64,000 nt of DNA, taken from contig NZ_CP103057.1 in the NCBI RefSeq assembly GCF_025231525.1, forward strand, positions 3,234,501-3,298,500, written 5' to 3'. Positions within the stretch are counted from its first letter, which is position 1; each line of letters opens with the position of its first letter. The stretch is from Sphingomonas endolithica. GTDB taxonomy: Bacteria; Pseudomonadota; Alphaproteobacteria; Sphingomonadales; Sphingomonadaceae. The notes under the pieces are model-generated. The model worked only from the letters and a program-made list of their open reading frames with translations. It was not told where the DNA came from and ran no database searches. The translations under genes were made by a program, and so were the position numbers. Shown one piece after another: positions 315 through 18,143 of this stretch.

Positions 315-710
315 CTATCTCGCCGCTGGTGCCGCCGCGCGCTGCGAGGGCAGGGCAGTAAGCGCCGCGATCAGCGCCTTGTCGTCGTTCGGTGCGATCG
401 GTGCCTTGTAGACGGTGCGCATCTTGTCGATCGTCGCCTGCCACTGCTCCGCGCCCAACACCGGCTGCGTGGCGATCATCTCGGCGGAATGGCAGGCGGT
501 GCAGTTGGCGGTGATAAGGTCGCTACCCGCCGGCAACGCGGCGGTTTCCTCAGGCAGCGTGATCTGGTCCGACACCAGCGTAACTCCGCCGCCGGATACA
601 CCCGCAGCCGCCGCGGTCTCAGTCGGACCTGAACGAAGCAGCACGACCCAAACCACTGCCAGTACCGCGATCAGCCCCAGCACCGACAGCGCGATCGTCC
701 GCTTGCTCAT
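315..710 (-). CDS. Membrane-anchored monohaem cytochrome c, SorB-like sulfite dehydrogenase subunit
   Basis: Encodes 131 residues. A hydrophobic N-terminal segment (about residues 6-25) looks like an uncleaved anchor or signal, and one CxxCH haem site (Cys70, Cys73, His74) follows. The only other clear feature is an Ala/Pro-rich tail. Its ATG overlaps the stop of the upstream molybdoenzyme gene by ATGA, which fixes the start at 710 although the frame is open further upstream. Position directly after a sulfite-oxidase-type gene indicates it is the c-type electron acceptor of a SorAB-like periplasmic sulfite dehydrogenase that passes electrons towards the respiratory chain. The cytochrome assignment is from the motif; the partner is inferred from context. 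Confidence 0.8.
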   Translation of the reverse strand: MSKRTIALSVLGLIAVLAVVWVVLLRSGPTETAAAAGVSGGGVTLVSDQITLPEETAALPAGSDLITANCTACHSAEMIATQPVLGAEQWQATIDKMRTVYKAPIAPNDDKALIAALTALPSQRAAAPAAR

Positions 711-1930
711 GCCGCGGTCACCGCGATCGTCTCGATCGGGTTGCGCATGAAGCCGGCCGGGTTCCAGATCGCCTGCGCCACCTGCGTCTGGCCGGTGCTG
801 TTCGTGCAGCGTACCGCCAGTTTGTACCGGCCCGGCGCGACACCCGGCACCGTCGCCTCCCATAGTCGGAAGCCGTAGCGCCCCTGATCGGGGCCAAGCG
901 GCGCGGCGTGCCAGCTACGTCCGCCGTTCATCGACAGCTCGACCCGCGCCACGCCGCTCGTGCCACCCATTGCCAGGCCGCGGATGTAGAAAGGCGACCG
1001 CGCCGTCACGTTCGCGCCATTGGCGATGTTGGTGAAGAAGGCGCGTGGCACCATGCCGTTGATCGGCACGGTCGGGAAATCCTTTGCGCCAGGCCGCACG
1101 TTCGCACCGGGCGTGTCGGGAATGCGATACGCCTTTTCCATCCAGTAACCGGTATCCGGCGCGCTGAGCACCTCGATCCGGTCGAGCGCCTTCACCCAAT
1201 AGGTCGAATACCAGCCCGGCACGATCAGGCGCAGCGGAAAGCCGTTGAGCATCGGCAATTGCGCACCGTTCATCAGATAGGCGATCATCACCTCGCCGCC
1301 GCGCGCATGATCCAGCGCGAGCGATTTCTCGAATGCAGGTGCGCCAGGCGGCGGCTTGTCCAGCCCGCCGAACTTCACCGCGACGGCGCCCGGTGCGACA
1401 CCGGCCCGGTCCAGCACGTCGCGCAAGCGCACACCGACCCACTTGGCGTTGCCGATCGCGCCATTGCCCCATTGGGCGCCCGGCACGCGCGGGCTGAACA
1501 GGCCGCGCGAATTGCCCGAACACTGGTTGACCGCGGCGATCTCGATGCGCGGCATGGCCAGCAATTCGGCCAGCGACAGGCTCAGGCGCCGCCGCACCGC
1601 GCCGCCGACGTTCAGCCGAAAGGTGCGCACATCCACCGCGGTCGGAATATCGCTGTAATGCCAGCGCACGAAGAAGCGGTCGTTGGGCGTGAAGACCTGA
1701 CCGTCCAGCGCGTCCATTGGCGTCTCCAGCAACGGCGCGCGGCCGCGCTGCAGGATCATGTTGCCCTTGCCGGGGAAATTGCTGGTGCTCGGCCGTGCGC
1801 CGTTGCCCCCAGGCAGGCCAAGATCGACCAGCGCCTGTGCCCAGGCCGGCGCGCTCGCAAGACCTGCGCCCACCCCGATCAGCCCGAGCGCATGGCGGCG
1901 ATCCCACAACTGGTCGAGCGCGTCAGCCAT
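707..1930 (-). CDS. Molybdopterin sulfite oxidase family enzyme, SorA-like
   Basis: Encodes 407 residues. The N-terminus carries a twin-arginine signal (RRHALGLIGVG, about residues 11-21) ending near AWAQA, so the folded enzyme should be exported by Tat to the periplasm. The central molybdopterin domain contains NQCSGNSRG, in which Cys137 is the expected molybdenum ligand. The last ~120 residues form the Ig-like Mo-co dimerisation domain. Length and layout match bacterial sulfite:cytochrome c oxidoreductases. The start at 1930 overlaps the upstream reductase stop by 8 bases, and the gene overlaps the cytochrome gene by 4, so the three are translationally coupled. Likely role: oxidation of sulfite released by the neighbouring monooxygenase. 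Other sulfite-oxidase-family substrates cannot be excluded. Confidence 0.82.
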   Translation of the reverse strand: MADALDQLWDRRHALGLIGVGAGLASAPAWAQALVDLGLPGGNGARPSTSNFPGKGNMILQRGRAPLLETPMDALDGQVFTPNDRFFVRWHYSDIPTAVDVRTFRLNVGGAVRRRLSLSLAELLAMPRIEIAAVNQCSGNSRGLFSPRVPGAQWGNGAIGNAKWVGVRLRDVLDRAGVAPGAVAVKFGGLDKPPPGAPAFEKSLALDHARGGEVMIAYLMNGAQLPMLNGFPLRLIVPGWYSTYWVKALDRIEVLSAPDTGYWMEKAYRIPDTPGANVRPGAKDFPTVPINGMVPRAFFTNIANGANVTARSPFYIRGLAMGGTSGVARVELSMNGGRSWHAAPLGPDQGRYGFRLWEATVPGVAPGRYKLAVRCTNSTGQTQVAQAIWNPAGFMRNPIETIAVTAA

Positions 1931-2531
1931 TGGTGTGTATCGACAGCGGTGCGAACCGCGCGACCTGCTTGCCGACCATGCACAATTGCTCGACCACCGC
2001 CGGGTCGCTTGCGCCGCCCTCATCGTCGAACTTGGTGATCTGCGTGTTGATCGCCGCGGCAAACGGCGTCGGCCAGCCGCGCAGCGCATGGACGATCGAG
2101 CGCAGCGCCGCGATCGTGCTGCCGGTCGCCTGCCAGCCATAGGCAGTGGCGATCAGCCCGACCGGCATGTCGGCCAGATAGGGGCGCTCCGTATCGCGCG
2201 CGGTCTCCTCCAGCAGGTCGAGCGCGTTCTTGACCACACCCGATATGCTGCCGTGATACCCGGGCGAGGCGATGATCAACGCCGATGCCTGGCGTACGGT
2301 ATCGACGAACTCGCGCTCTTCGGGCGTACGCGTCGCGGCGCGCGGATCGTAGAGCGGCAGTCGCCCCATCTCCGCCCCGCCGAAGATGCGCGTGCGGAAG
2401 CCCTCGCGCCCGGCAGAATCGAGCGCGATCCGCAGCGCCCGCTCGGTCGAGGAGGTGCCGCCGATCGTGCCGCCAATCCCAACGACGAGGGGCTGATCGA
2501 TGGGCGGCCGGTCTGGTGCGATTGTTGTCAT
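1923..2531 (-). CDS. NADPH-dependent FMN reductase (SsuE/SmoA type)
   Basis: About 202 residues with the flavodoxin-like fold of the NADPH-dependent FMN reductases. An N-terminal strand (LVVGIGGTIGGTSSTE) leads into the phosphate-binding region, and SPGYHGSISGVVKNALD is the family's conserved flavin-binding segment. Such enzymes supply reduced FMN to two-component monooxygenases. The partner is almost certainly the SsuD-like gene just upstream, separated by about 130 bases that contain a palindromic repeat. An in-frame GTG at 2546 would add five residues; I prefer the ATG at 2531 because the family homology begins just after it, although its Shine-Dalgarno is weak. Confidence 0.78.
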   Translation of the reverse strand: MTTIAPDRPPIDQPLVVGIGGTIGGTSSTERALRIALDSAGREGFRTRIFGGAEMGRLPLYDPRAATRTPEEREFVDTVRQASALIIASPGYHGSISGVVKNALDLLEETARDTERPYLADMPVGLIATAYGWQATGSTIAALRSIVHALRGWPTPFAAAINTQITKFDDEGGASDPAVVEQLCMVGKQVARFAPLSIHTNG

Positions 2532-2568
2532 GCCTCGTTCTACCACGCTGGTTCGTTCTGAGTAGCCA

Positions 2569-2631
2569 TTGAGCTTGTCGAAACGGTGGATCGGACGACA
2601 CGCATCGTTAGGCGGCCGTCGACAAGCTCAG
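2569..2631. repeat. REP-like palindrome between monooxygenase and FMN reductase genes
   Basis: GAGCTTGTCGA at 2571-2581 and its exact complement TCGACAAGCTC at 2619-2629 flank about 37 bases. The same arm sequence recurs at 56912-56979. It lies in an otherwise tight gene string and may act as a processing or attenuation hairpin. Dispersed palindromes with this core are common in sphingomonad genomes (general knowledge, not checked here). Confidence 0.7.
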
Positions 2632-2662
2632 CGTCTACTTGGCACGACCCGCAATGTTTGGA

Positions 2663-3730
2663 TCAACGAGTAAGCGGCGCATGGTCGATGTGCGGCAGCA
2701 CGTGGCGGGCGAACAGATCCGCCTCGGCGGCATGCGGATAGCCCGACAGGATGAACGCCTCGATTCCCATGTCCCGGTAAGCGTTGATCTTGGCCAGCAC
2801 TTGATCCGGATCGCCGACGATCGCCGCGCCGCAGCCGGAGCGCGCCCGGCCGACGCCGGTCCACAGGTTCGCCTCGGCATAGCCGTCATCCGCGGCATTC
2901 TCGCGCAACGCCGCCTGTGCCGCCACGCCGGCGGAGGTCGAATCGAGCGACTTGGCGCGGATCGCCGCACCTTCGGCATCGTCGAGCTTCGAGAGCAGCC
3001 GGTCAGCGGCGGTGCGTGCCTCGGCCTCGCTGTCGCGCACGATGACATGCGCCCGGTAACCAAATCTCAGCGTGCGGCCATGCGCGGCGGCACGCGCGGT
3101 CATGTCGGCGATGATCGCCGCCACCGTCTCCTGGCGATTGGGCCACATCAGGAATACGTCCGCGCCCTTGGCGGCCGCCTCGCGTGCATCCGGCGACAGC
3201 CCACCGAAATACAGCAACGGCGCCTTGCCGCCGATCATGCCGATCCGCGGCGGATCGACCTTCAGCTTCCAGAATTCGCCGTCATGGTCGAGCGACTCGC
3301 CGTTCAGCAGCGTCTTCAGGATGTTCATCGCCTCGACCGTGCGCGCATAACGCGGCGCCGAGCCCAGCGTTTCGCCCGGCAGGTCGGATGAAATGATGTT
3401 GATCGTCAGCCGCCCGCCGAGCAACTGGTCGATCGTCGCGATCTGCCGTGCGAGCTGCGGCGGCCAGCTTTCGCCGACACGCACCGCCATCAGCAGCGCC
3501 ATGCGCCGCAGCATCGGTGCGATCGCCGCGGCAAACGCGGTGGTGTCGATGCCCAGCGCATAGCCCGAGGGCAGCAGGATATTGTCGAAACCGCCGCTTT
3601 CGGCCTGCAGCACGATGTCGCGGCAATGCGCCCAACTGGATTTCAGCTTGTCATCGGGAACGCCCAGAAACTCGTAATCGTCGTCGCACAGCGCGGAGAA
3701 CCAGCTGACTTCGCAAGGAGGATTGGTCAC
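2663..3730 (-). CDS. SsuD-like FMNH2-dependent monooxygenase (luciferase family), candidate sulfoquinovose monooxygenase
   Basis: Encodes 355 residues of the bacterial luciferase/alkanesulfonate monooxygenase family, a TIM barrel using reduced FMN and O2. Visible family landmarks are the N-terminal EVSWFSALCD, RLTINIISSDLPGE, and the YFGGLSPDAREAAAK segment typical of SsuD. The GTG start at 3730 overlaps the stop of the aldo/keto reductase (GTGA) and has GGAGAA six bases upstream, so I reject the longer frame to 3787. Known SsuD/SmoC enzymes cleave C-S bonds of sulfonates, giving sulfite and an aldehyde. With a flavin reductase, an aldo/keto reductase and a sulfite dehydrogenase beside it, a sugar sulfonate such as sulfoquinovose is a reasonable substrate, but nothing in the sequence alone proves it. 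Confidence 0.78.
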   Translation of the reverse strand: MTNPPCEVSWFSALCDDDYEFLGVPDDKLKSSWAHCRDIVLQAESGGFDNILLPSGYALGIDTTAFAAAIAPMLRRMALLMAVRVGESWPPQLARQIATIDQLLGGRLTINIISSDLPGETLGSAPRYARTVEAMNILKTLLNGESLDHDGEFWKLKVDPPRIGMIGGKAPLLYFGGLSPDAREAAAKGADVFLMWPNRQETVAAIIADMTARAAAHGRTLRFGYRAHVIVRDSEAEARTAADRLLSKLDDAEGAAIRAKSLDSTSAGVAAQAALRENAADDGYAEANLWTGVGRARSGCGAAIVGDPDQVLAKINAYRDMGIEAFILSGYPHAAEADLFARHVLPHIDHAPLTR

Positions 3731-4644
3731 GGCAGTTTCTCCCCACGCGCCGCAACCAGCACGTCGTACCATTCGGTGCGCGTCCACCGAACGCCGGCCA
3801 CGTGGGCGATCTCGGCGATGCGGCCGACATTCTGCGTGCCTACGATCGGGATTACCCGAGCCGGATGCGCCATGATCCAGCTATAGGCCGCAGTCGTCCG
3901 GCTGACTCCGCTGCTTGCCGCCTTGATGTCCAGTGCGGCGGCGACCGCCTGTTCCTGCGGCGTGCCCGGCTGCGCGATCCGCCCACCGCCGAGCGGCGAC
4001 CAGGCGAGCACGGCGATGTCGCGCTCCATCGCCAGATCGAGCAGCCCGCTGGTGATCGGCTCCAGCTCCAGCGGCGAGAATTCCGGCTGCGCGGTGGCAA
4101 GCGGGATCGTCAGATAGCTGGCCAGCGCCCTGGTCTGCGCCAGCGTGTAGTTCGACACGCCAACGGCGCGCACCTTGCCGCTGGCGACCATCTTCTCGAG
4201 GCAGGCGGCGACTTCCTGCGGGTGTGCCAGGATGTCGGGGCGGTGGATCTGGTACAGGTCAACATGATCGGTGCGCATCCGGCGCAGCGACGCGTCCAGT
4301 GCCTGCTCTAGATACGAACTACTCGAATCGTACGGCACGGGCGGGGTGATGCCACCCTTGGTTGCCAGCACCATGCGCTCGCGCAAGCCCGGCGACTCGG
4401 CGAATACCTGACCCAACAGCGCCTCGGCATCGCCGAATCCGCCAGCGCCATCGAAGCCGTAAATGTCGGCGGTATCGAACAGGGTGACTCCCGCATCGAA
4501 CGCTGCCTCGATCAGCGCGCGTCCTTCCGCTACCGGCACGCCGGCAAAGCGCCACATCCCCCAAGCTATTGGTGAGACGAGCAATCCGCTCTTGCCGAGC
4601 GGGCGCATTTCGGGCTTAAGATCGGTGTCAGACATCGCTGTCAT
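3727..4644 (-). CDS. Aldo/keto reductase (candidate SmoB-like aldehyde/sugar reductase)
   Basis: Encodes 305 residues, a typical length for an aldo/keto reductase TIM barrel. The catalytic tetrad is visible as Asp57 and Tyr62 (DTADIYGF), Lys96 (LATKGG) and His134 (LYQIHRP). The C-terminal NADP-binding region contains PIVGTQNVGRI. It is the first gene of the minus-strand operon leading to the monooxygenase, reductase and SorAB-like genes. In the described sulfo-SMO pathway an AKR (SmoB) reduces 6-oxo-glucose to glucose, so its placement here is suggestive. Start is ATG 4644, or ATG 4635 three codons later. It is divergent from the 4662 gene with only 17 bases between the starts. Confidence 0.82.
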   Translation of the reverse strand: MTAMSDTDLKPEMRPLGKSGLLVSPIAWGMWRFAGVPVAEGRALIEAAFDAGVTLFDTADIYGFDGAGGFGDAEALLGQVFAESPGLRERMVLATKGGITPPVPYDSSSSYLEQALDASLRRMRTDHVDLYQIHRPDILAHPQEVAACLEKMVASGKVRAVGVSNYTLAQTRALASYLTIPLATAQPEFSPLELEPITSGLLDLAMERDIAVLAWSPLGGGRIAQPGTPQEQAVAAALDIKAASSGVSRTTAAYSWIMAHPARVIPIVGTQNVGRIAEIAHVAGVRWTRTEWYDVLVAARGEKLP

Positions 4645-4661
4645 ACATAAGGGCGAGAGGC

Positions 4662-5741
4662 GTGGTAGAGCAAGTACGTTATGGATTGGTCGGTGCCGGC
4701 ATGATGGGCATCGAACATATCACAAACCTTGCCATCACGCCCGGCGCCGTGGTGACCGCGCTTGCGGATCCCACGCAAAGCTCGCTCGACCACAGCCAGG
4801 CTGCGCTCGGCCGGTCTGTCGCGACGTTCGACAGCGCCGCGGCGCTTGCGGCAAGCGGCCTGTGCGATGCGGTGATCGTCGCCAGCCCCAATCATACGCA
4901 CCGCACGGTGCTGGAGCCGTTGTTCGACGCGGGGCTACACATTCTGTGCGAAAAGCCATTGGCCACGACGATCGAGGATGCGCGCTGGGTCGCCTATCGC
5001 GCCGGGCAGAGTGACCGCGTGTTCTGGACGGCGATGGAATATCGCTACATGCCGCCCGCCGCCGAGTTCATCCGCGCGATCCATGATGGCGACATTGGCC
5101 GGCTGCAGATGCTGTCGATCCGCGAGCATCGCTTCCCGTTCCTCGAGAAGGTCGGTGACTGGAACCGCTTCAGCCGCAACACCGGTGGCACGATGGTCGA
5201 GAAATGCTGTCATTTCTTCGATCTGATGCGGCTGATCGTGCGGAGCGAGGCCGTGCGCGTCTATTGCTCGGGCGCGATGGACGTCAATCATCTCGACGAA
5301 CGCTATGATGGCGAGACGCCCGACATCATCGACAACAGCTACACCGTGGTCGATTTCGCCAATGGGGTGAGGGCGATGCTCGATCTGTCGATGTTCGCCG
5401 ATGGCGCCGAGAACCAGGAGGAAATCGCCGCGGTCGGCTCGGACGCACGGCTTGACGTGCTGATCCCGGAAGGCGCGCTGGTCCATGCGCCACGCGTCGG
5501 CTTCCGCAATCCCAAGAAGGTCACGCGCCGGGTGGTGCATACCGACGCGACGGCGCTGAATGCGGGGAGCCATCACGGCTCGACCTTCTACGAACACCAG
5601 AAGTTCAACGCCGCCGTGCGCGGGCAAGGGCCGGTCGAGGTCACTGCGCATGACGGCTTGATGGCGGTCGCGATCGGCACCGCGGCGGAAATCAGCGCGC
5701 GCGAGCACCGCGTGGTGACGATGCGCGAATTGGGGTTCTGA
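4662..5741 (+). CDS. Gfo/Idh/MocA family NAD(P)-dependent oxidoreductase or oxidoreductive glycosidase
   Basis: Encodes 359 residues. The Rossmann motif GLVGAGMMG is at residues 8-16 and the family hallmark CEKPLA at about 96-101. The C-terminal alpha/beta domain has the Gfo/Idh/MocA substrate-binding pattern, including GGTMVEKCCHFFD. The start is GTG at 4662, preceded by a GAGAGG stretch. Members act on sugars or inositol, and some (GH109, GH188) use NAD+ to cleave glycosidic bonds; GH188 members include sulfoquinovosidases. Because the neighbouring genes resemble sulfoquinovose catabolism and no GH31 enzyme is present, a GH188-like role is worth testing, but a plain sugar dehydrogenase is equally compatible with what I can see. 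Confidence 0.8.
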   Translation: MVEQVRYGLVGAGMMGIEHITNLAITPGAVVTALADPTQSSLDHSQAALGRSVATFDSAAALAASGLCDAVIVASPNHTHRTVLEPLFDAGLHILCEKPLATTIEDARWVAYRAGQSDRVFWTAMEYRYMPPAAEFIRAIHDGDIGRLQMLSIREHRFPFLEKVGDWNRFSRNTGGTMVEKCCHFFDLMRLIVRSEAVRVYCSGAMDVNHLDERYDGETPDIIDNSYTVVDFANGVRAMLDLSMFADGAENQEEIAAVGSDARLDVLIPEGALVHAPRVGFRNPKKVTRRVVHTDATALNAGSHHGSTFYEHQKFNAAVRGQGPVEVTAHDGLMAVAIGTAAEISAREHRVVTMRELGF

Positions 5742-5749
5742 CAAGCCGC

Positions 5750-5767
5750 GCTTGGCCTCGGCCAAGC
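5750..5767. promoter_or_regulatory. Inverted repeat in the leader of the TonB receptor gene
   Basis: GCTTGGCC TC GGCCAAGC is a perfect 8-bp dyad with a 2-base centre, 8 bases after the 5741 stop and 71 bases before the receptor ATG. There is no T-tract after it, so it may be an operator rather than an intrinsic terminator. The remaining leader (5768-5838) must hold the promoter; GGGAGG lies just upstream of the start. Confidence 0.4.
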
Positions 5768-5838
5768 ATGATTGCGCTGTCAGAGCCGGCATAACTGAAT
5801 AACCCATCGCTCGAATGGGATTTGAGGGAGGACGATAG

Positions 5839-8151
5839 ATGAAAAGCTTCTACCTGACTGGCGTCGCGGCGCTCGCGCTGATTGCCGCGCCGGCCCACGC
5901 GCAGGACAATTCGGTCGGCGGCGTCGTCAGCGATCAATCCGGCGTATCCGCAGGCACCGAGCCCAACGACACGGACGATGCCACGACCGGCGACATCATC
6001 GTCACCGCGCAGAAGCGTAGCGAACGGTTGCAGGACGTGCCGGTCGCCATTTCGGTCATCTCGGGCGACCAGCTTGCCGCCAAGGGCGCGATGAACCTCG
6101 AGGGTGCGCAATATCTCGTGCCGACCTTGAACTTCCGCAAATCCGGCACCGCCATCAACCAGTCGCTGTTCCTGCGCGGTGTCGGCACCTCGACCTTTTC
6201 GATCGCCGGCGAGCCTTCGATCTCCACCGTCGTCGACGGCGTCGTCTATAGCCGCGCGGGCGAGGCGTTCAGCGACCTGATCGACATCGACCGCATCGAA
6301 GTGCTGCGCGGGCCGCAAGGCACGTTGTTCGGCAAGAACACGTCTGCCGGCGTGATCAACATCGTCACCAAGCGGCCGGGCAACGATTTCGGTGGCTTCC
6401 TGGAGGGCGGCTATTATACAAACGGCAACGAATATCGCGTGCGCGGTGCGGTGGATGTGCCGCTCGGGGAAAATGTGAAGAGCCGCTTCACCGGCTTTTA
6501 CGGCAATTACGACGGCAACATCCGCAACATCGCGCACGATAACGACCGGGTGAACGGTTACGAACATTATGGCGTACGCGGCATGATCGTGGCCGATCCG
6601 ACGCCGGACCTGACCTTCACGCTGATCGCCGACTACCGCAAGTCGAAGGACGATTGCTGCGCCGAGGTGATCGGCACGACGCCGACCAACGCCACCGCCA
6701 GCGTGCTACCGGACATCCGCGGCGACAAGTCGCGCACCGTCAACCAGGATCTCGTCACCCGCAGCAACGAGACGAGCTGGGGCGTGTCGCTACAGGCCGA
6801 CGCCACCCTCGGCACCCAGACGGTTACCTATATTGGCTCGTATCGCGAATACGACAACGAGGAGATCCGTGACGGCGACTGGCTGCCCCAGGCCTATGTC
6901 GGCTTCAACCAGCTGCACGATTTTGGCCCGCAAACATCGAATACCTTTACGCAGGAGCTACGTCTCACCTCGCCGTCGAACCAGTTCTTCAGCTATGTCG
7001 TCGGTGCTTTCTACTCGCGCGCCGAAACCGAACGCACATTCCGACGTGACGATGTCGTCTGCACGCTGACGCCAACGCCGACGGTGCTGACGCCCTGCTC
7101 GACGACCGGCGCTACCGTGACACGCCCGACCGGAACCGCCGTGTTCGGCTCGGTGTTCAAGAACCTCGCCTTTTTCGGTCAGGGGACGTTCAACCTCACG
7201 GACCGTTTCCGTGCCATCGCCGGTTTTCGCTACACCAGCGATCAACTCGACGTCTTCCACAACCGCGTGACTACGCTCGCTGGTCCCGGCATCAACCCGA
7301 GCTTCGGCCCATTCACTGGCAAGACCACCAACAGCAATTGGTCGGGCAAGGCCGGACTGCAATATGACGTGGCGCCGCAATCCGTTGCCTACGCGACCTA
7401 TTCACGCGGCTATAAAGGGCCCGCGTTCAACGTGTTCTACAACCTGACTGCCACGGGCACCAACGTGGTCGAGCCGGAGACCGCCGACGCCTACGAGGTC
7501 GGTCTCAAGAACACGTTCTTCGGCGGCAAGCTCGTGCTCAACCTGGCCGCTTATTATGCCAAGTATCATAATTTCCAGGCCAACAACCCTGATCTGGTCG
7601 CCGGAGTGCTCGTCACGCGCTTCACCAATGCCGGTGAAATCTCGACACGCGGTGGCGAGCTCGATCTGGTATTCCGCCCGGTCCCCGATCTCTCGTTCAG
7701 TGGTGGCCTGGCCTATACCGATGCGCATATCGATCGCTTCAAGGTGCCGACCAACGGTGTTGTGACCGGCGTGGTGCCCGATGGTACGACGCTCGGCTAT
7801 GCGCCCAAATGGAAGGGCTCGCTCGGCGCCGATTACCGCATCCGCACCGGCGGCGTGGTCGATTTAACGCTCGGCGCGCAGGGCTCTTATCAGTCAAAGC
7901 AGCTGTCTCAGCTCGATGCGTCGGCGGCTGTCCGCGATGCGACGACGATCAAGAGCTATGGTCTGGTCGATCTCTCGGCCGGCATCGTCGATAATGCCGA
8001 TCGCTTCCGCGTCAGCCTCCAGGTCAAGAACCTGTTCGACCAGAGCTTTGCCAGCGCGATCACCAGCGGCGGTCCTGGGGGCAGCTATCGCTACCTCATC
8101 CCGCGCGACGCCGATCGCTATTACGGCATCACCGGCCGCGTGAACTTCTGA
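5839..8151 (+). CDS. TonB-dependent outer-membrane receptor
   Basis: Encodes 770 residues. A signal peptide (residues 1-22, ending APAHA) is followed by a plug domain that begins at about residue 50 (DIIVTAQKRSERLQDVPVAI) and includes the LRGVGTS and GPQGTLFGKNTSAGVINI segments. The rest is a 22-strand barrel pattern ending in an aromatic C-terminus (GITGRVNF). This is the large sphingomonad class of receptors for carbohydrates and aromatic or natural products rather than ferric citrate types; no STN signalling domain is seen. It follows the Gfo/Idh/MocA gene by about 100 bases and a dyad. Its likely role is uptake of the substrate of this locus across the outer membrane, taking the place an ABC system fills in other sulfo-SMO clusters. 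Confidence 0.88.
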   Translation: MKSFYLTGVAALALIAAPAHAQDNSVGGVVSDQSGVSAGTEPNDTDDATTGDIIVTAQKRSERLQDVPVAISVISGDQLAAKGAMNLEGAQYLVPTLNFRKSGTAINQSLFLRGVGTSTFSIAGEPSISTVVDGVVYSRAGEAFSDLIDIDRIEVLRGPQGTLFGKNTSAGVINIVTKRPGNDFGGFLEGGYYTNGNEYRVRGAVDVPLGENVKSRFTGFYGNYDGNIRNIAHDNDRVNGYEHYGVRGMIVADPTPDLTFTLIADYRKSKDDCCAEVIGTTPTNATASVLPDIRGDKSRTVNQDLVTRSNETSWGVSLQADATLGTQTVTYIGSYREYDNEEIRDGDWLPQAYVGFNQLHDFGPQTSNTFTQELRLTSPSNQFFSYVVGAFYSRAETERTFRRDDVVCTLTPTPTVLTPCSTTGATVTRPTGTAVFGSVFKNLAFFGQGTFNLTDRFRAIAGFRYTSDQLDVFHNRVTTLAGPGINPSFGPFTGKTTNSNWSGKAGLQYDVAPQSVAYATYSRGYKGPAFNVFYNLTATGTNVVEPETADAYEVGLKNTFFGGKLVLNLAAYYAKYHNFQANNPDLVAGVLVTRFTNAGEISTRGGELDLVFRPVPDLSFSGGLAYTDAHIDRFKVPTNGVVTGVVPDGTTLGYAPKWKGSLGADYRIRTGGVVDLTLGAQGSYQSKQLSQLDASAAVRDATTIKSYGLVDLSAGIVDNADRFRVSLQVKNLFDQSFASAITSGGPGGSYRYLIPRDADRYYGITGRVNF

Positions 8152-8160
8152 TCCACCCGC

Positions 8161-8184
8161 CCCCGCGCATAAATATGCGCGGGG
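8161..8184 (+). terminator. GC-rich hairpin after the TonB receptor gene
   Basis: An 11-bp perfect stem (8161-8171 with 8174-8184, arms CCCCGCGCATA/TATGCGCGGGG) around AA, ten bases after the receptor stop. A run of G rather than T follows, so termination would rely on hairpin strength; it may also protect the mRNA 3' end. Confidence 0.55.
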
Positions 8185-8201
8185 GGCAACGGGCAGTTCG
8201 G

Positions 8202-8312
8202 CTATTGGTAGCCGCCTTCGTCCTCGCGCTCATGCGCCGCTTCTTCTTGTACCTCTTCCATCGCTTCTGCTTCGCTGTCCTCGTCGTCCTTGCGCGGTTC
8301 GTCGATCATCAT
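8202..8312 (-). CDS. Very small acidic protein (36 aa), unknown
   Basis: A short ORF starting at the first of two adjacent ATGs, with GGAGACAG immediately upstream as a good ribosome-binding site. The product is extremely acidic, rich in Glu and Asp (DDEDSEAEAMEE and similar), with Gly-Gly-Tyr-Gln at the end and no hydrophobic segment. The reading frame is open further upstream to 8552, but that extension has no coding character. No family recognised. Call rests on the ribosome-binding site and composition only. Confidence 0.35.
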   Translation of the reverse strand: MMIDEPRKDDEDSEAEAMEEVQEEAAHEREDEGGYQ

Positions 8313-8412
8313 CTGTCTCCTCTGCAACAGCAACGATCGACCGCGCAGACGGGTCCAATGATCGTTGAAGCCGTGGGACCCACAGAACCCGACGCCGGGG
8401 TTTCCGGTTTGG

Positions 8413-8622
8413 TCAGCGCTCGCGGGGCTTTGCTGCTCTTGGCCTACCCACGGGCGTTTTTGCATCCTTGGGATGGCAGAGGCGGGCGACAGGCTGGCAG
8501 GCGATGCCGATGTTCGAGCAGCGCTGCTTGCCGCTGGCCGCCGTGCAGGCACGGCATTCCCGCTTGATGTCGGTGCACCGTTGCGGCGAAACGAGCAGCA
8601 GTGCCAAGGTTGCGAGCATCAT
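8413..8622 (-). CDS. Small cysteine-rich exported protein, unknown
   Basis: Encodes 69 residues. Two tandem ATGs are preceded by GGAG at six bases. A short hydrophobic leader (MMLATLALLLVSPQ) is followed by about 35 residues containing seven cysteines (pattern CTDIKREC, CTAAS, CSN, ACQP, LC) and then a basic Lys/Arg/Pro tail. The arrangement suggests a secreted or periplasmic disulfide-bonded protein. I recall similar unnamed Cys-rich small proteins in sphingomonads but cannot name a family. It lies alone between the TonB receptor and the peptidase, on the peptidase strand. Confidence 0.5.
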   Translation of the reverse strand: MMLATLALLLVSPQRCTDIKRECRACTAASGKQRCSNIGIACQPVARLCHPKDAKTPVGRPRAAKPRER

Positions 8623-8772
8623 CTCGTTCTCCGATCGCGGTGGTAGCGACGGGTGCGCGGTACTGACGTCCAGCAGCGGCGCTCGTTTACAGTTCCTCGG
8701 CGCAGCCGGGGTCCAGTAGGGGCGAGAAGGTAACTGGCGCTACGCATGATCATGACCACCTACGCAAGTGGG

Positions 8773-8790
8773 CCCCGGTCAGCGCCGGGG
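8773..8790 (-). terminator. Possible hairpin after the S9 peptidase gene
   Basis: CCCCGG TCAGCG CCGGGG forms a 6-bp stem 46 bases downstream of the peptidase stop. No T-tract on the minus strand, so only a weak candidate. Confidence 0.3.
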
Positions 8791-8835
8791 AACCGCCAGA
8801 GTATATCGCCGCAAGACGCTCGCCGCTTGATCCGC

Positions 8836-10875
8836 CTACCGCCGCGTCCGATAGCGATCGAACCAGGCGATGATTGCTGATGCCTTGGCCGCCGACTGCG
8901 ACGGGCGCGCCGCGAGGCCGCCATGGCTCGCGCCGGGCACCTTCACCAACGCCGTCGGCACGCCGGCAATCTGCAGCGCGGCGTAATACTGCTCGGATTC
9001 GCTTACCGGCGTGCGGTAATCGTCGCTGCCGACCACGACGAGGGTCGGCGTCTTGACGTTGCCGACCAGGCTTAGCGGCGAGCGCTGCCAATAGCTCATT
9101 GGGTCTTCCCACGGCAGCTTGGCGAACCAATAGCGTGACGTGAACAGCGTATTGTCCATCGTCAGCGCCTCGCTTACCCAATTGATCACCGGCTTCTGTG
9201 TCGCCGCCGCCTTGAAGCGGTTGGTTTTGCCGACGATCCATGCGGTCAGCACGCCGCCGCCCGAGCCGCCAGTGACGAACAGATTGTCGGGGTCCGCGGT
9301 ACCGTCGGCGATCGTCGCATCGACGGCGGCGATCAGGTCGTCATAGTCGGCCGAGGGGTAGTTCTTGTCGATCAGGTTGGCGAACTCGGCGCCGTAAGAG
9401 GTCGAGCCGCGCGGATTGGTCCACAGCACGGCATAGCCTGCCGCGGCATACAATTGCACGTCGCTCGAAAAGCCCGGCCCATAGGCACTGTTCGGTCCGC
9501 CGTGGATTTCCAGCACCAGCGGCAGCCGCTGTGCGGGTGCGCGCCCCGGAGGCACCGCCAGCCAAGCGTCGATCGCTCTGCCATCGGGGGCGGTGACAGC
9601 GATCTTGCGCACCTGCGCCAATGCCTTCGATTCGGTCAGCACGGCGTTAAGATTTGTCAACCGCCGCCTGCGTCCGCCTGCCAGCACCCACACGTCGGCC
9701 GGCGCATTCGCGTCGCCGCCGGTATAGGCGATCGTGCCGCCACGCGAGACAGTGAACTCACCACCGGTATAGGGCCGGTCGAGCCCGCCGCCGGCGACAT
9801 TGTCGATCAGCGGCGTCATTCGCCCGTCCATCCCGATCCGCCCAACGTGGCGCTGGCCGTGATCGTCATAGCTCGCATACAGGCTGCGACCATCGGCCGA
9901 CCATTGCGCGTCCTCAATCGCGCGATCCAGGTTGCCGGTCAGCGAGCGTGGACCCGCCGCATCGCGGTCGCCGACATACAATTGCGTATTCTCATAGCTC
10001 CGACGCTTGTCGTCGAAGCCGAGCCAGGCGATCCGCGCGCCGTCCGGCGACACGCGTGGCTGCGCATCCGGACCGTCACGCGAGGTAAGCGTGCGAAGTG
10101 CGCCGCTCGCCACGTCCACCGCGATCACGTCCGAATTCATCACCTGCCGGTCGGCATCTGGCGAGCGGATCGCCGCGAACACGATGCCGCGCCCGTCCGG
10201 CGTCCACGATAGCGGCCCGCCATCGTCGAACTTGCCGAATGTCAGCTGCCGTGCTCCACCGCCATCCGCGGCGACCACGAACAGGTGATCGTAACCAGGC
10301 TTTACATAGCCGGGGCCATCATTGCGGTAATTGACCCGGTCGATGACGGTCAGCGGCTCGGCCCATTTCGCGCCCTCCGGCTTGGCCGGGCTGGTGCCGA
10401 GCTTCGTCGCCTCGCCAGCGACGGTGGCGATATACGCGAGCTTGGTGCCGTCCGGCGACCAGGCCAGCGCCTGCGGATCGCCCGGAAAACTCGTCACGCG
10501 CGCGCTCGCCCCGCTGGCGATCCAGCGCACGAACAATTGCGCGTGATCGCCGTCGGACGCCGAATAAGCGATCCGCGTGCCATCCGGCGACCAGCGCGGG
10601 TTGCTACCCTGGGTGGCAAACGGCGTTTGCCGGCCGCTTGCCACGTCGATCAGCCATAGCGACGATTGCAGCCGATCGGTCATCACGTCGCCGGTGCGCC
10701 GGACATATACGATCGAGCGCCCGTCCGGGCTGATCTGCGGATCGGCGGCGATCGACAGGCCGAACAGGTCGCTGCCGGTGAAGCTGCGGCTCGGCGCGTC
10801 GGCCGGCGGCGTGGATGGTTGCTGAGCGGCCGCCGGCGTCGCGGCGAGGATCAGGATCGCAAGGGCAAAGCGCAA
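8836..10875 (-). CDS. S9 family (prolyl oligopeptidase/acylaminoacyl-type) peptidase, exported
   Basis: About 679 residues. From the TTG at 10875 (AAGGA about ten bases upstream) the product opens with a clean signal peptide ending TPAAAQQ. A TTG at 10935 would add 20 residues that do not look like a signal. The N-terminal half is a WD40-like beta-propeller (repeated SPDGxxI, SPDGTKLAY units). The C-terminal half is an alpha/beta hydrolase with nucleophile GGSGGG, acid GSDDYRTP and histidine GASHGG. It cleaves peptides, probably in the periplasm. It follows the MFS gene by about 90 bases on the same strand and may be cotranscribed; its link to the sugar/sulfur genes is unclear. Confidence 0.85.
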   Translation of the reverse strand: MRFALAILILAATPAAAQQPSTPPADAPSRSFTGSDLFGLSIAADPQISPDGRSIVYVRRTGDVMTDRLQSSLWLIDVASGRQTPFATQGSNPRWSPDGTRIAYSASDGDHAQLFVRWIASGASARVTSFPGDPQALAWSPDGTKLAYIATVAGEATKLGTSPAKPEGAKWAEPLTVIDRVNYRNDGPGYVKPGYDHLFVVAADGGGARQLTFGKFDDGGPLSWTPDGRGIVFAAIRSPDADRQVMNSDVIAVDVASGALRTLTSRDGPDAQPRVSPDGARIAWLGFDDKRRSYENTQLYVGDRDAAGPRSLTGNLDRAIEDAQWSADGRSLYASYDDHGQRHVGRIGMDGRMTPLIDNVAGGGLDRPYTGGEFTVSRGGTIAYTGGDANAPADVWVLAGGRRRRLTNLNAVLTESKALAQVRKIAVTAPDGRAIDAWLAVPPGRAPAQRLPLVLEIHGGPNSAYGPGFSSDVQLYAAAGYAVLWTNPRGSTSYGAEFANLIDKNYPSADYDDLIAAVDATIADGTADPDNLFVTGGSGGGVLTAWIVGKTNRFKAAATQKPVINWVSEALTMDNTLFTSRYWFAKLPWEDPMSYWQRSPLSLVGNVKTPTLVVVGSDDYRTPVSESEQYYAALQIAGVPTALVKVPGASHGGLAARPSQSAAKASAIIAWFDRYRTRR

Positions 10876-10968
10876 CGGCCGGGGTTCCTTCGGATATGGT
10901 GGTGCGCAAGATGCGCAATTGTGGGGCGGACGCAAGCATGTCCTAAGGTCTGAGATCGGTGTGGCGGC

Positions 10969-12225
10969 TCAGTGCGCCATGGCAATTGCAGTACCCTCCT
11001 CCTGCTCGACCAGTACGATCACCGGAATCAGCAACTGCACGCAGCCCAGGGCCAGCAGGTACGAGCACGAACAGATCGCCAGCAACGGCCCATAACCATA
11101 GCCATGCGCCAGCGACACCGCTGCGAGCTGGATCAGCACGATCGACCACATATTGCCGCAAAATGCGGCGATCCCGATCGTCGAGCCGACCGCGCGCGCC
11201 GGAAACACGTCGGTGGTGAGCGCGAAGACGTTGGTGGAAAACCCCTGATGCGCAAACAGCCCGAGCCCGAGCAGCAACGCCGCCACCCATGCGCTGTCCA
11301 CGAACAGCACCAGCGTAACCGGCAGGATCAGCAAGGCGTAGAGCAGCAAGGTCGATTTACGCGCCCGGTTGACGCTCCATCCGACCGCCATCAGCCGCGT
11401 CGGCAGCCAGCCGCCGGTCAGCGCGCCGCAGGCCGCCATGACATAGACGAGCGCGACCGGCAGCCCCACCGTGCCCTGCGGCAGGCCGAACATGCGGTGG
11501 AACAGATCGGGCAGCCAGGCGAGCATGAAGAACCACACCTGATCGGACAGGACCTTGGCCAGCGCGATGGCCAGCGTCTTGCGGTCGCGCACTAGGCTCA
11601 GCCACTTGATCGGCGCCGGCTTCACCGCATCGGCGGCGACCGGCTCCACCTTCACCGCCAGCCACACCGCGACCCAGACGAGCCCGAGCCCGCCCGCGAC
11701 CAGGAACGCCGCCTTCCAGCCGAACGCGACGGCCAGCGCCGGTATCACCAGCGGCGTGACGATCGCGCCGATATTGGGCGCGGTGTTGCCGATGCCGAGC
11801 GCCATCGACCGCTCCTTGGGCCCGAAATACGTAGCAGCCGTCTTGACCGCGGCGGGGGTTCCTACCGATTCAGCCGCGCCAAGCACGACACGCGAGGCGA
11901 CAAACCCACCGACCGTACCGACCAACGCATGCGCCATCCCCGCCAGGCTCCAGATGCCGACGCCGAGCGCGAAACCCAGACGCAGCCCCACCCGGTCGAT
12001 GAACCATCCAGTGCCGAGAAACGCCACCGCGGCGGCGAATTGGAAAGCCGATATCATGTTGGCGTAATCGCCGTCGCTCCAGCGAAACTCCGCCTCCAGC
12101 GTCGGCTTCAGCAACGCCAGGATCTGTCGATCGACATAATTGAGCATGATCGCGAAGAACACCAACGCGACGATGATCCACCGTCGCCGCTCCTGTGCCT
12201 GGCCCGCCATCATCTCCGCTCCCAT
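10969..12225 (-). CDS. MFS transporter, ACS/hexuronate-transporter-like
   Basis: Encodes 418 residues with about 12 membrane helices. The first loop motif (ALLKPTLEAEFRWSDGDYANM) and LNYVDRQIL in helix 1 are typical of the anion:cation symporter branch that carries hexuronates, galactonate and related acidic sugars. Arginine after the first motif (DRVGLRLGF) is present. Start ATG 12225; ATGs at 12213 and 12210 follow a GGGAGCGGAG and are alternatives. A LacI-type dyad lies ten bases upstream of the start. A carrier for a negatively charged sugar would fit sulfoquinovose or its glycoside entering the cytoplasm. Substrate is inference. Confidence 0.8.
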   Translation of the reverse strand: MGAEMMAGQAQERRRWIIVALVFFAIMLNYVDRQILALLKPTLEAEFRWSDGDYANMISAFQFAAAVAFLGTGWFIDRVGLRLGFALGVGIWSLAGMAHALVGTVGGFVASRVVLGAAESVGTPAAVKTAATYFGPKERSMALGIGNTAPNIGAIVTPLVIPALAVAFGWKAAFLVAGGLGLVWVAVWLAVKVEPVAADAVKPAPIKWLSLVRDRKTLAIALAKVLSDQVWFFMLAWLPDLFHRMFGLPQGTVGLPVALVYVMAACGALTGGWLPTRLMAVGWSVNRARKSTLLLYALLILPVTLVLFVDSAWVAALLLGLGLFAHQGFSTNVFALTTDVFPARAVGSTIGIAAFCGNMWSIVLIQLAAVSLAHGYGYGPLLAICSCSYLLALGCVQLLIPVIVLVEQEEGTAIAMAH

Positions 12226-12234
12226 TTGCTTTCC

Positions 12235-12246
12235 GATAACGTTGTC
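12235..12246. promoter_or_regulatory. LacI-family operator candidate upstream of the MFS gene
   Basis: GATAACGTTGTC is a near-perfect 12-bp dyad centred on CG (GAyAACGTTrTC), the form bound by many LacI/GalR regulators. It lies just upstream of the MFS start. No LacI-type gene occurs in the window, so the regulator would be elsewhere. Confidence 0.4.
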
Positions 12247-12283
12247 ATACTCCAGCGCACTCGGCTACAGCCTAATCTCTGGC

Positions 12284-12310
12284 CGTCACCCCGGAACAAG
12301 TCCGGTGACG
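12284..12310. repeat. Dispersed palindrome, family CCCCGGAACAAGTCCGG
   Basis: CACCCCGGA ACAAG TCCGGTG hairpin between the divergent MFS and YeiH genes. A second copy with the same core lies at 57843-57869. It overlaps the upstream end of the open frame of the YeiH gene, which argues for a start after it. Confidence 0.65.
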
Positions 12311-12349
12311 ATGGGGGTAGAATTGGCAACAGTGAAACGACCTCTGCCA

Positions 12350-13366
12350 ATGGCCGCAGACCTGTACGGCGATATCGAGCCCTCGCCCAAAGGGACGTGG
12401 CAGACGCACTTCCCCGGCCTGGCGATCGTCGCCGCTGGCACGCTCGCCGCGGCATTCATCTCCGATCATTACGGCGCGCCGCTGACGCTGATGGCATTGC
12501 TGATCGGGCTTGCGCTCAACTTCCTCAGCGCGGACATGCGGCTGACCCCCGGCCTTGCCTTTGCCTCGCGGTCGCTGCTGCGTTGGGGGATCGTGCTGGT
12601 CGGCGTGCGCATCACCTTCGGGCAGATCGTCGATCTCGGCCCGGTCGCTTTGCTCTGCGTGCTGACGATCGTTGCGCTGACGATCGGCGCGGGCATCCTG
12701 GGCGCGCGGCGCTTCGGCTTCGACACCGCCTTTGGAACGCTGGCGGGCGGCGCGGTGGCGATCTGCGGCGCATCGGCGGCGATGGCGCTGGCCACTACGC
12801 TCGGCGAGCGGCGCGTCAGCCAGGCGCAACTGACGATGGTGCTGGTCGGCATCTCGGCGCTCAGCGCACTCGCCATGGTCCTCTACCCGATCGCCGCGCA
12901 CGCGCTGCACCTGAACGACCTCAAGGCCGGTTTCCTGCTGGGTGCCGCAATCCACGACGTCGCGCAGGCGCTGGGCGCGGGCTATTCCTATTCGGATGCA
13001 GCGGGCGGCATCGCCGCGATCGTCAAGCTGACGCGGGTCGCCTTGCTCGCGCCGGTACTGGCGATCGTCGCGCTGTTCCTGCGCGGCGACGGCACACGCA
13101 CGAAGGGCCCGGGCATTCCGTGGTTCGTCGTCGGATTCTTCGTGCTCGCCGGGATCAACTCCTTCGGCGTGATCCCGGTGCTCGTCGCCCGAGGTGCCGA
13201 GCAGGTCGCCGGGGGCTTGCTCGCGGCGGCAGTCACGGCAACCGCGATCCGTTCGCCGCTGTCGCAACTGCTGGAGGCGGGGCCAAAGCCCTTGCTCGTG
13301 ATCCTGGCAGCGACCTTGGTCGCCTTTCTGCTCGCGCTGGCCGCCGCGATGCTGCTGATCGGCTAG
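12350..13366 (+). CDS. YeiH-family putative sulfate exporter
   Basis: About 338 residues, 10-11 hydrophobic helices, matching the YeiH/UPF0324 family that is annotated as putative sulfate exporters. Visible hallmarks are the RLTPGLAFASRSLLRWGIVLVGVRI segment split over helices 2-3, GGAVAICGASAAMA, and GAAIHDVAQALGAGY. The frame is open to 12140, but that part runs through the divergent MFS gene and a palindrome. I take ATG 12350; GTG 12332 and ATG 12311 are alternatives and none has a strong ribosome-binding site. The family function is not biochemically firm, but an exporter of sulfate or sulfite would fit the adjoining desulfonation genes. Confidence 0.78.
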   Translation: MAADLYGDIEPSPKGTWQTHFPGLAIVAAGTLAAAFISDHYGAPLTLMALLIGLALNFLSADMRLTPGLAFASRSLLRWGIVLVGVRITFGQIVDLGPVALLCVLTIVALTIGAGILGARRFGFDTAFGTLAGGAVAICGASAAMALATTLGERRVSQAQLTMVLVGISALSALAMVLYPIAAHALHLNDLKAGFLLGAAIHDVAQALGAGYSYSDAAGGIAAIVKLTRVALLAPVLAIVALFLRGDGTRTKGPGIPWFVVGFFVLAGINSFGVIPVLVARGAEQVAGGLLAAAVTATAIRSPLSQLLEAGPKPLLVILAATLVAFLLALAAAMLLIG

Positions 13367-18142: not shown

Positions 18143-18143
18143 G

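What the first reader, a model, noticed from the sequence alone, without database searches (positions are those of the whole stretch)
315..13366. Sulfo-SMO-like desulfonation locus served by a TonB receptor
Seen in sequence: one minus-strand string with coupled starts (AKR, SsuD-like monooxygenase, FMN reductase, SorA, SorB), a divergent Gfo/Idh/MocA gene, a TonB receptor, an ACS-type MFS carrier and a YeiH putative sulfate exporter. Established: in the Agrobacterium sulfo-SMO pathway a flavin reductase and monooxygenase release sulfite from sulfoquinovose and an AKR reduces the product to glucose; GH188 NAD+-dependent sulfoquinovosidases belong to the Gfo/Idh/MocA type. Inference: this is a sphingomonad version with TonB/MFS uptake and periplasmic sulfite oxidation, using an oxidoreductive glycosidase in place of GH31. 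I do not recall a described cluster with this layout.
Basis: partly seen in the sequence, partly recalled or inferred. Interest (0 to 1): 0.75.

Follow-up and report, generated by a model that had tools for sequence, protein, structure and literature searches.

The report
Sphingomonad sulfoquinovose (plant sulfosugar) degradation locus
A Sphingomonas carries a complete-looking gene set for taking in and desulfonating the plant sulfolipid sugar sulfoquinovose; the pathway is already known, but the receptor, sulfite-disposal and regulator parts seen here point to specific genes that could now be tested.

Summary
The genes are there and the reading holds at sequence level. The monooxygenase is 54% identical to the PDB chains 7oh2/7olf (SmoC by recall) against 37-38% to SsuD/MsuD; the AKR is nearest 7bbz/7bby (SmoB by recall); the Gfo/Idh/MocA protein fits GH188 (379 bits to FlSqgA, next unrelated chain 82) with nine of nine checked residues kept. 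In 201 same-genus genomes GH188 occurs in 78, 77 of them SmoC+. Of 13 SmoC+ genomes without GH188, 12 have GH31 beside SmoC; of 13 GH188+ genomes I picked, none. Close homologues of the TonB receptor occur in 63 genomes, all SmoC+ (0 of 111 SmoC-). SorAB is an optional add-on (SorA beside SmoC in 20 of 90). I add a LacI-type palindrome, TGACANCGNTGTCA, before SmoB/GH188, receptor and MFS genes; the LacI ortholog lies about 214 kb away here. Sulfo-SMO in sphingomonads is in print, and Kaur et al. 2023 list a GH188 cluster of Sphingomonas sp. Leaf17, whose locus shares all our parts except SorAB and the S9 gene. Verdict: a new variant of a known kind. Receptor substrate, YeiH's role, operator binding and all activities are inferred.

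The parts
315..710 (-). SorB-like c-type cytochrome (P0006): N-terminal hydrophobic segment, one CxxCH at residue 70
   Evidence: NCBIfam SorB NF052246 73.7 bits, below its cut-off of 93; CxxCH; 4-nt overlap with SorA
707..1930 (-). SorA-like molybdenum sulfite dehydrogenase (P0005), presumed periplasmic
   Evidence: NF052245 494.6 bits (cut-off 600), PF00174 179 bits; PDB 2blf 374 bits
1923..2531 (-). NADPH-dependent FMN reductase, PF03358 (P0004), presumed flavin donor for the monooxygenase
   Evidence: PF03358 76.8 bits; SsuE/MsuE models far below cut-off
2570..2630 (.). dispersed inverted repeat (TGAGCTTGTCGA / TCGACAAGCTCA) in the 131-nt gap between monooxygenase and reductase
2663..3730 (-). 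SmoC-type FMNH2-dependent sulfoquinovose monooxygenase (P0001), GTG start
   Evidence: 54% to 7oh2/7olf, 36-38% to SsuD/MsuD; W196, R226, H228, R297 kept, loop RSGC as in 7oh2 and 7olf
3727..4644 (-). SmoB-type aldo-keto reductase (P0002), presumed 6-dehydroglucose reductase
   Evidence: PDB 7bbz/7bby 173-174 bits, next 132; in the same stretch as SmoC in 77 of 80 loci
4630..4643 (.). LacI-type operator candidate AGACATCGCTGTCA, overlapping the start codon region of SmoB
   Evidence: 1 mismatch to TGACANCGNTGTCA
4662..5741 (+). GH188 NAD+-dependent sulfoquinovosidase (P0003), GTG start 17 bp from the SmoB start
   Evidence: 379 bits to 8qc2; after 8qc3 and 8zn9 the next chain has 82 bits; 9 of 9 ArSqgA ligand/catalytic residues
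5769..5782 (.). LacI-type operator candidate TGATTGCGCTGTCA before the receptor gene
   Evidence: 2 mismatches; 23 of 49 receptor genes in relatives have a site
5839..8151 (+). TonB-dependent outer-membrane receptor (P0007)
   Evidence: PF07715 + PF00593; close homologues in 63 of 201 genomes, all SmoC+
10969..12225 (-). MFS carrier (P0008), best model the galactonate-transporter (TIGR00893) group
   Evidence: PF07690 147 bits; TIGR00893 155 bits, below cut-off 395; in 60 of 80 loci
12234..12247 (.). LacI-type operator candidate CGATAACGTTGTCA between MFS and YeiH genes
   Evidence: 2 mismatches; 31 of 53 MFS genes in relatives have a site
12350..13366 (+). YeiH-type PF03601 membrane protein (P0009; ORF opens at 12140, likely start about 12350), presumed sulfite exporter
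   Evidence: PF03601 192 bits; TIGR00698 123.5 bits, below cut-off 232.6; within 20 kb of SmoC in 28 genomes

Best explanation
It is a sulfolytic sulfoquinovose (SQ) utilisation locus of the sulfo-SMO (sulfo-ASMO) type in a Sphingomonas. Proposed path: the TonB receptor brings SQ glycosides (sulfoquinovosyl glycerol) across the outer membrane and the MFS carrier across the inner one (inferred). The GH188 enzyme cleaves the glycoside in the cytoplasm by transient NAD+ oxidation at C3 (known for the family, inferred here). The FMN reductase feeds FMNH2 to SmoC, which releases sulfite and 6-dehydroglucose; SmoB reduces that to glucose (known pathway, inferred here). Sulfite leaves through YeiH and is oxidised to sulfate in the periplasm by SorAB, passing electrons to cytochrome c (inferred). 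A LacI-family repressor acts on three palindromic sites (inferred). Shown here: gene identity at sequence level, kept active-site residues, conserved linkage, motif placement. Not shown: any activity, substrate or expression.
For: SmoC: 54.4/54.5% to 7oh2/7olf against 37.9/36.5% to MsuD/SsuD; 53 columns invariant in at least 97% of 109 relatives' sequences and in both chains but different in MsuD and SsuD; MsuD's sulfonate motif (PMC8234197 section 7) kept as W196, R226, R297 with loop RSGC. SmoB nearest 7bbz/7bby. GH188: 379 bits against 82; R157 and K163 match ArSqgA's sulfonate-binding Arg166 and Lys172; 9 of 9 residues in P0003, in 75 of 75 nearer and 9 of 9 farther relatives. Linkage. GH31/GH188 swap: 12 of 13 against 0 of 13. 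No GH31 gene above the YihQ cut-off in the genome. YeiH drives sulfite resistance in Salmonella (PMC12880088, abstract). Operators.
Against: SmoB similarity is moderate (174 bits; other AKRs 132). The FMN reductase scores only 33 bits on SsuE (cut-off 164). SorA, SorB, YeiH and the MFS miss their curated NCBIfam cut-offs. SorA lies within 2.5 kb of SmoC in only 20 of 90 SmoC+ genomes and in 0 of 40 family loci outside the genus, and 36 SmoC- genomes have SorA too, so it is not core. 27 of 90 SmoC+ genomes have no receptor homologue at E <= 1e-130, and two genomes (G327, G433) have a second one far from SmoC. 8 of 48 YeiH genomes lack SmoC. The LacI ortholog is not in the cluster here. The SmoB operator overlaps codons, so coding conservation may inflate that count. 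The locus samples overlap each other and are not corrected for kinship. The single-sequence GH188 model was useless (pLDDT 37).
Confidence: 0.88

Rival explanations
1. A sulfur-scavenging alkanesulfonate locus: the monooxygenase is an SsuD/MsuD that strips sulfite from short alkanesulfonates, with the AKR and Gfo genes unrelated neighbours.
For: Same enzyme family; W, R, R and H sulfonate-site residues are common to SsuD/MsuD and 7oh2/7olf.
Against: SsuD equivalog score 241 against cut-off 518; 16-18 points nearer 7oh2/7olf; GH188 in 77 of 90 SmoC+ and 1 of 111 SmoC- genomes; a LacI-family regulator lies in 49 of 80 loci (I did not look for sulfur-starvation regulators).
Confidence: 0.04
2. 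The locus acts on a different sulfonated hexose or a wider range of sulfosugars, with the same chemistry.
For: Identity of about 54% leaves room for changed sugar specificity; SmoB is only moderately similar; no substrate was tested.
Against: The nine residues named for ArSqgA, including the C4-OH Glu and the sulfonate Arg/Lys, are kept in P0003; GH31 genes take the same slot in relatives.
Confidence: 0.07
3. The enzymes are for SQ, but receptor and MFS carry something else and sit there by chance.
For: TonB receptors are common in sphingomonads (17-126 first-look candidates in the genomes listed with a match); the nearest solved chains are siderophore and colicin/pesticin receptors; an S9 peptidase gene intervenes.
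Against: Close receptor homologues found in SmoC+ genomes only, 63 of 63, the best one within 20 kb of SmoC in 58; operator-like sites before receptor and MFS genes.
Confidence: 0.1

Closest known systems
Agrobacterium sulfo-SMO pathway (SmoA/B/C; Sharma 2022, paper not held; pathway seen in reviews, cluster content recalled)
   Same: SmoC monooxygenase, SmoB reductase and a flavin reductase giving sulfite and glucose
   Different: Agrobacterium uses an ABC importer with binding protein SmoF and a GH31 sulfoquinovosidase (recalled); here TonB receptor + MFS, GH188, and SorAB
Novosphingobium aromaticivorans DSM 12444 sulfo-ASMO (SquD/SquF; Liu 2021, seen through PMC9594981 passages)
   Same: Sphingomonad with SmoC- and SmoB-type enzymes
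   Different: Found through a YihQ gene and lacks an SsuE in the cluster; here GH188 and a PF03358 reductase
Sphingomonas sp. Leaf17 GH188 cluster (Kaur 2023, PMC10755693, Fig. 5c legend; figure not seen)
   Same: Leaf17 locus L091: reductase-SmoC-SmoB | GH188-receptor-MFS-YeiH-LacI
   Different: No SorAB hit within 10 kb there; in the window LacI is elsewhere and an S9 peptidase gene sits between receptor and MFS
Sphingomonas hylomeconis locus L079
   Same: SorB-SorA-reductase-SmoC-SmoB | GH188-receptor-MFS-YeiH
   Different: LacI at the end of the cluster and no S9 peptidase hit

Membership tests
sulfo-SMO (sulfo-ASMO) pathway | SmoC-type monooxygenase and SmoB-type reductase encoded together (rule used in PMC13372026, passage) | tested here: met
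   adjacent, 4-nt overlap; that the nearest PDB chains are SmoC and SmoB is recalled
sulfo-SMO (sulfo-ASMO) pathway | flavin reductase in the cluster | tested here: inconclusive
   PF03358 present, but SsuE/MsuE models far below cut-off
sulfo-SMO (sulfo-ASMO) pathway | release of sulfite from SQ and growth on SQ | not testable with these tools
   needs bench work
GH188 sulfoquinovosidase | sequence kinship with SqgA chains far above other Gfo/Idh/MocA proteins | tested here: met
   379 and 372 bits to 8qc2 and 8qc3 (SqgA by PMC10755693), 330 to 8zn9 (named only putative oxidoreductase, taken as GH188 by similarity); next 82
GH188 sulfoquinovosidase | NAD/SQ-contact residues K107, Y136, E164 (Glu163 in the paper), R166, L170, K172, E189, H193, H321 of ArSqgA | tested here: met
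   9 of 9 in P0003
GH188 sulfoquinovosidase | NAD+-dependent cleavage of SQ glycosides | not testable with these tools
   needs assay
SsuD alkanesulfonate monooxygenase (TIGR03565) | curated equivalog score 518.2 | tested here: not met
   241.3 bits
GH31 sulfoquinovosidase YihQ (NF007746) | a member in this genome above 553 bits | tested here: not met
   two GH31 ORFs found; one scores 102.5 bits, the other has no match to that model
SorAB sulfite dehydrogenase | curated scores SorA 600 and SorB 93 | tested here: not met
   494.6 and 73.7 bits; still the best models by far, and PDB 2blf 374 bits: likely works like SorAB, divergent
YeiH family TIGR00698 | curated score 232.6 | tested here: not met
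   123.5 bits; PF03601 met with 192 bits
TonB-dependent receptor | plug and beta-barrel domains | tested here: met
   PF07715 58 bits, PF00593 160 bits

The most novel reading that the evidence does not exclude
Sphingomonads run SQ use as one LacI-controlled regulon with its own outer-membrane receptor for sulfolipid head groups, a YeiH-type sulfite exporter, and, in a subset including this strain, a SorAB enzyme that turns the released sulfite into respiratory electrons: an uptake-to-energy version of sulfo-SMO.
Probability: 0.5. Interest if true: 0.6.

Novelty: new variant of a known kind. Interest (0 to 1): 0.42.

Why it matters
SQ is made on a scale of about 10 billion tons a year (PMC10755693). 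I found no paper on how Gram-negative degraders move its charged glycosides through the outer membrane (listing only; TonB has 0 occurrences in the three SQ papers searched). Here a receptor whose close homologues were found in SmoC+ genomes only (63 of 63) and a YeiH linked to a sulfite-releasing enzyme give specific genes to test. The within-genus GH31/GH188 swap is independent support for GH188 as the alternative glycosidase, and the operator motif gives a way to look for further regulon members.

Tried and rejected
PhyH gene as a replacement desulfonating enzyme: L058 has PhyH and no SmoC in its stretch, but its genome G101 has SmoC on another contig (82% identity), so rejected. SorAB as a core part: rejected as core (20 of 90 adjacent; 0 of 40 family loci) and kept as add-on. 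Consensus sigma-70 promoter and terminator scan: 0 promoter-like sites (2.6 expected) and 8 terminator-like (8.2 expected), uninformative. Single-sequence AlphaFold model of P0003: pLDDT 37, not used, and no fold search was made. No pocket model of the monooxygenase was made; residues were compared by alignment instead. Sharma 2022, Ye 2023 and Liu 2023 were not held, so pathway details from Agrobacterium rest on review passages and recall. That 7oh2/7olf and 7bby/7bbz are the published SmoC and SmoB structures is recalled: the PDB names them alkanesulfonate monooxygenase, methanesulfonate sulfonatase and aryl-alcohol dehydrogenase, and one search found no held paper naming three of these codes (7OLF, 7OH2, 7BBZ).
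Full report
WHAT IS THERE. The window (a stretch of a 4.09-Mb single-contig genome; the nearest named monooxygenase relatives are Sphingomonas) holds on the minus strand AKR, monooxygenase, FMN reductase, SorA and SorB, and on the plus strand a Gfo/Idh/MocA protein and a TonB receptor, then an S9 peptidase (-), an MFS carrier (-) and a YeiH-type protein (+). Three of four junctions on the minus strand overlap; the monooxygenase-reductase junction is a 131-nt gap with a dispersed inverted repeat. SmoB and GH188 start codons are 17 bp apart; the divergent pair is similarly tight in the 54 loci in which the script found it (65-91 bp between fixed anchor residues, against 68 here; pairs 400 bp or more apart were not kept).

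ENZYMES. P0001: best PDB chains 7oh2 (390 bits) and 7olf (384), SmoC by recall, then MsuD 7jv3 216 and SsuD 199. Identity 54.4/54.5% against 37.9/36.5%. In 109 sequences from the fetched loci, 53 columns agree (at least 97%) with both chains and differ from MsuD and SsuD. MsuD's sulfonate site (W195, R225, R296, loop RGGA; PMC8234197, section 7 read) corresponds to W196, R226, R297 and loop RSGC in P0001, the loop of 7oh2 and 7olf. The SsuD equivalog model is not met (241 of 518 bits). P0002 is nearest 7bbz/7bby (174 and 173 bits, SmoB by recall; next 132). P0003 scores 379, 372 and 330 bits with 8qc2, 8qc3 and 8zn9, and 82 with the next chain; 8QC2 and 8QC3 are SqgA structures of GH188 (PMC10755693, parts 1-3 of 4 read). 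The nine ArSqgA residues named there are all kept in P0003, in 75 of 75 sequences of the nearer tier and in 9 of 9 of the farther tier (the paper's Glu163 falls on E164 in my numbering). The reductase P0004 is PF03358 but no SsuE by curated score. SorA, SorB, YeiH and MFS have these families as best models but stay below the NCBIfam cut-offs.

LINKAGE. The three samples below overlap (for example L147 and L045, or L154 and L040, are the same contigs by length, and L079 appears to be G349), so they are not independent, and none is corrected for kinship. Family sample: 61 of 298 genomes have GH188 at E <= 1e-60, 39 (own included) at 63-100% and 22 at 47-55% identity. I fetched 31 of the 38 other nearer and 9 of the 22 farther loci. 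Of L032-L061 (30 nearer loci) 29 have SmoC, 29 SmoB and 28 a receptor hit; L062 has neither enzyme in its stretch, though its genome has SmoC on another contig; SorA occurs in 0 of 40 and the reductase in 1 of 40. Named loci: of 80 (the best 80 of more), SmoB 77, MFS 60, receptor 56 (two only by weak hits), LacI 49, GH188 45, YeiH 37, reductase 19, SorA 17, SorB 17; some stretches are cut by contig ends, so these are lower bounds. Eight (L077, L079, L081, L097, L101, L103, L120, L140) carry SorB-SorA-reductase-SmoC-SmoB-GH188-receptor. Genus sample of 201: SmoC 90, GH188 78 (77 SmoC+), receptor 63 at E <= 1e-130 with five candidates scored per genome (all SmoC+, best hit within 20 kb in 58, on another contig in 5), YeiH 48 at E <= 1e-40 (40 SmoC+, 28 within 20 kb, 10 on other contigs, 2 far), SorA 104 at E <= 1e-80 (68 SmoC+). 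Fisher p values are 1.6e-40, 6e-31, 5e-10 and 1.4e-9. SorA is within 2.5 kb of SmoC in 20 and within 10.5 kb in 27 of 90 genomes; 0.4 expected by chance. Thirteen SmoC+ genomes lack GH188; 12 have a GH31 gene within about 9 kb of SmoC (the exception is G424), against 0 of 13 GH188+ genomes that I picked, of which 4 have no GH31 match at all. The own genome's two GH31 genes are not YihQ by curated score.

REGULATION. A palindrome TGACANCGNTGTCA occurs in the window at 4630 (1 mismatch), 5769 (2) and 12234 (2), that is before SmoB/GH188, the receptor and the MFS; a fourth hit with 2 mismatches at 4617 overlaps the first, and two more with 2 mismatches lie at 24200 and 56566; the 80 loci hold 191 sites with at most 2 mismatches against 39 after shuffling. 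In the 80 loci, genes with such a site from -300 to +40 of the start: SmoB 63 of 73, GH188 35 of 45, MFS 31 of 53, receptor 23 of 49, YeiH 10 of 35, PhyH 1 of 8, SorB 1 of 17, SmoC 0 of 79, LacI 0 of 49, FMN reductase 0 of 19, SorA 0 of 17, S9 0 of 1; shuffled means 0-1. I derived the motif from this window and its relatives, so the counts describe it and are no blind test; SmoB and GH188 share one site where they diverge, and that site overlaps SmoB codons. Genome-wide there are 9 places with at most 1 mismatch against 2 for the reversed pattern; only one lies in this locus. The LacI of the S. hylomeconis cluster has an 80% ortholog here (other matches 30-46%) at C1:3020149-3021177, about 214 kb off, next to a transglycosylase/transpeptidase gene. 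That it binds these sites is inference.

MECHANISM AND LITERATURE. The steps are set out under Best explanation. Sulfo-SMO in sphingomonads (Novosphingobium) is in print (PMC9594981, PMC12890257 and PMC13372026, passages seen). GH188 in sulfo-SMO clusters and a Sphingomonas Leaf17 cluster are in Kaur 2023 (legend seen, figure not). The Leaf17 locus has the same core without SorAB, without the S9 gene and with LacI at its end (L091). A search for sulfoquinovose plus TonB gave 7 papers whose titles and abstract starts show none on SQ uptake by a receptor (listing only); sulfoquinovose plus sulfite dehydrogenase gave 4 (listing only, two of them on SQ degradation); sulfoquinovose plus Sphingomonas gave 6, none on SQ degradation by title (listing only). 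The library lacks most subscription papers, so this does not show absence in print. YeiH as the main driver of sulfite resistance in Salmonella: PMC12880088, abstract.

VERDICT. Real, correctly read, and a variant of a known pathway. New relative to what I could read: the receptor's tie to SmoC, the SorAB add-on in more than one arrangement (beside the reductase, as here, or behind LacI in L117, L121, L123, L125 and L127), YeiH linkage, the within-genus glycosidase swap, and the predicted operator set.

Noticed in passing
L063-L071 (e.g. L063:9499-14240, L065:9423-14200): A second sphingomonad GH188 tier (47-55% identity, all nine checked residues kept in the 9 fetched loci) sits with another AKR (9 of 9) and an SSF symporter (9 of 9), a TauD-type dioxygenase in 4 of 9 and GH42 in 4 of 9 (families from one representative each); SmoC was found in none of the 9 genomes. 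Looks like a sulfo-SDO (dioxygenase) type of SQ cluster.
   Followed up: partly
L033, L037, L045, L058; 9 of 80 loci: A 250-aa PhyH-type dioxygenase gene recurs in SmoC loci, often beside the MFS gene; role unknown.
   Followed up: partly
G000:C1:3020149-3021177 (L172:8144-9160): The LacI ortholog that relatives keep in the cluster (49 of 80 loci) lies about 214 kb away in this genome.
   Followed up: partly
window 8836-10935: S9 prolyl-oligopeptidase-type gene between receptor and MFS; only 2 of 80 relative loci have any S9 hit (L122, L131), neither at this place.
   Followed up: no
upstream of window base 265 (L072:18630-19766, -): The gene directly behind SorB on the same strand encodes a protein with a TonB C-terminal domain (PF03544).
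   Followed up: no
window 2571/2619, 43239, 56923/56958: Dispersed palindromic element GAGCTTGTCGA, twice as an inverted pair.
   Followed up: no
window 17240-21236: A 1030-aa TonB receptor and, behind it, a protein with only sub-threshold GDSL/DUF4886 matches.
   Followed up: no
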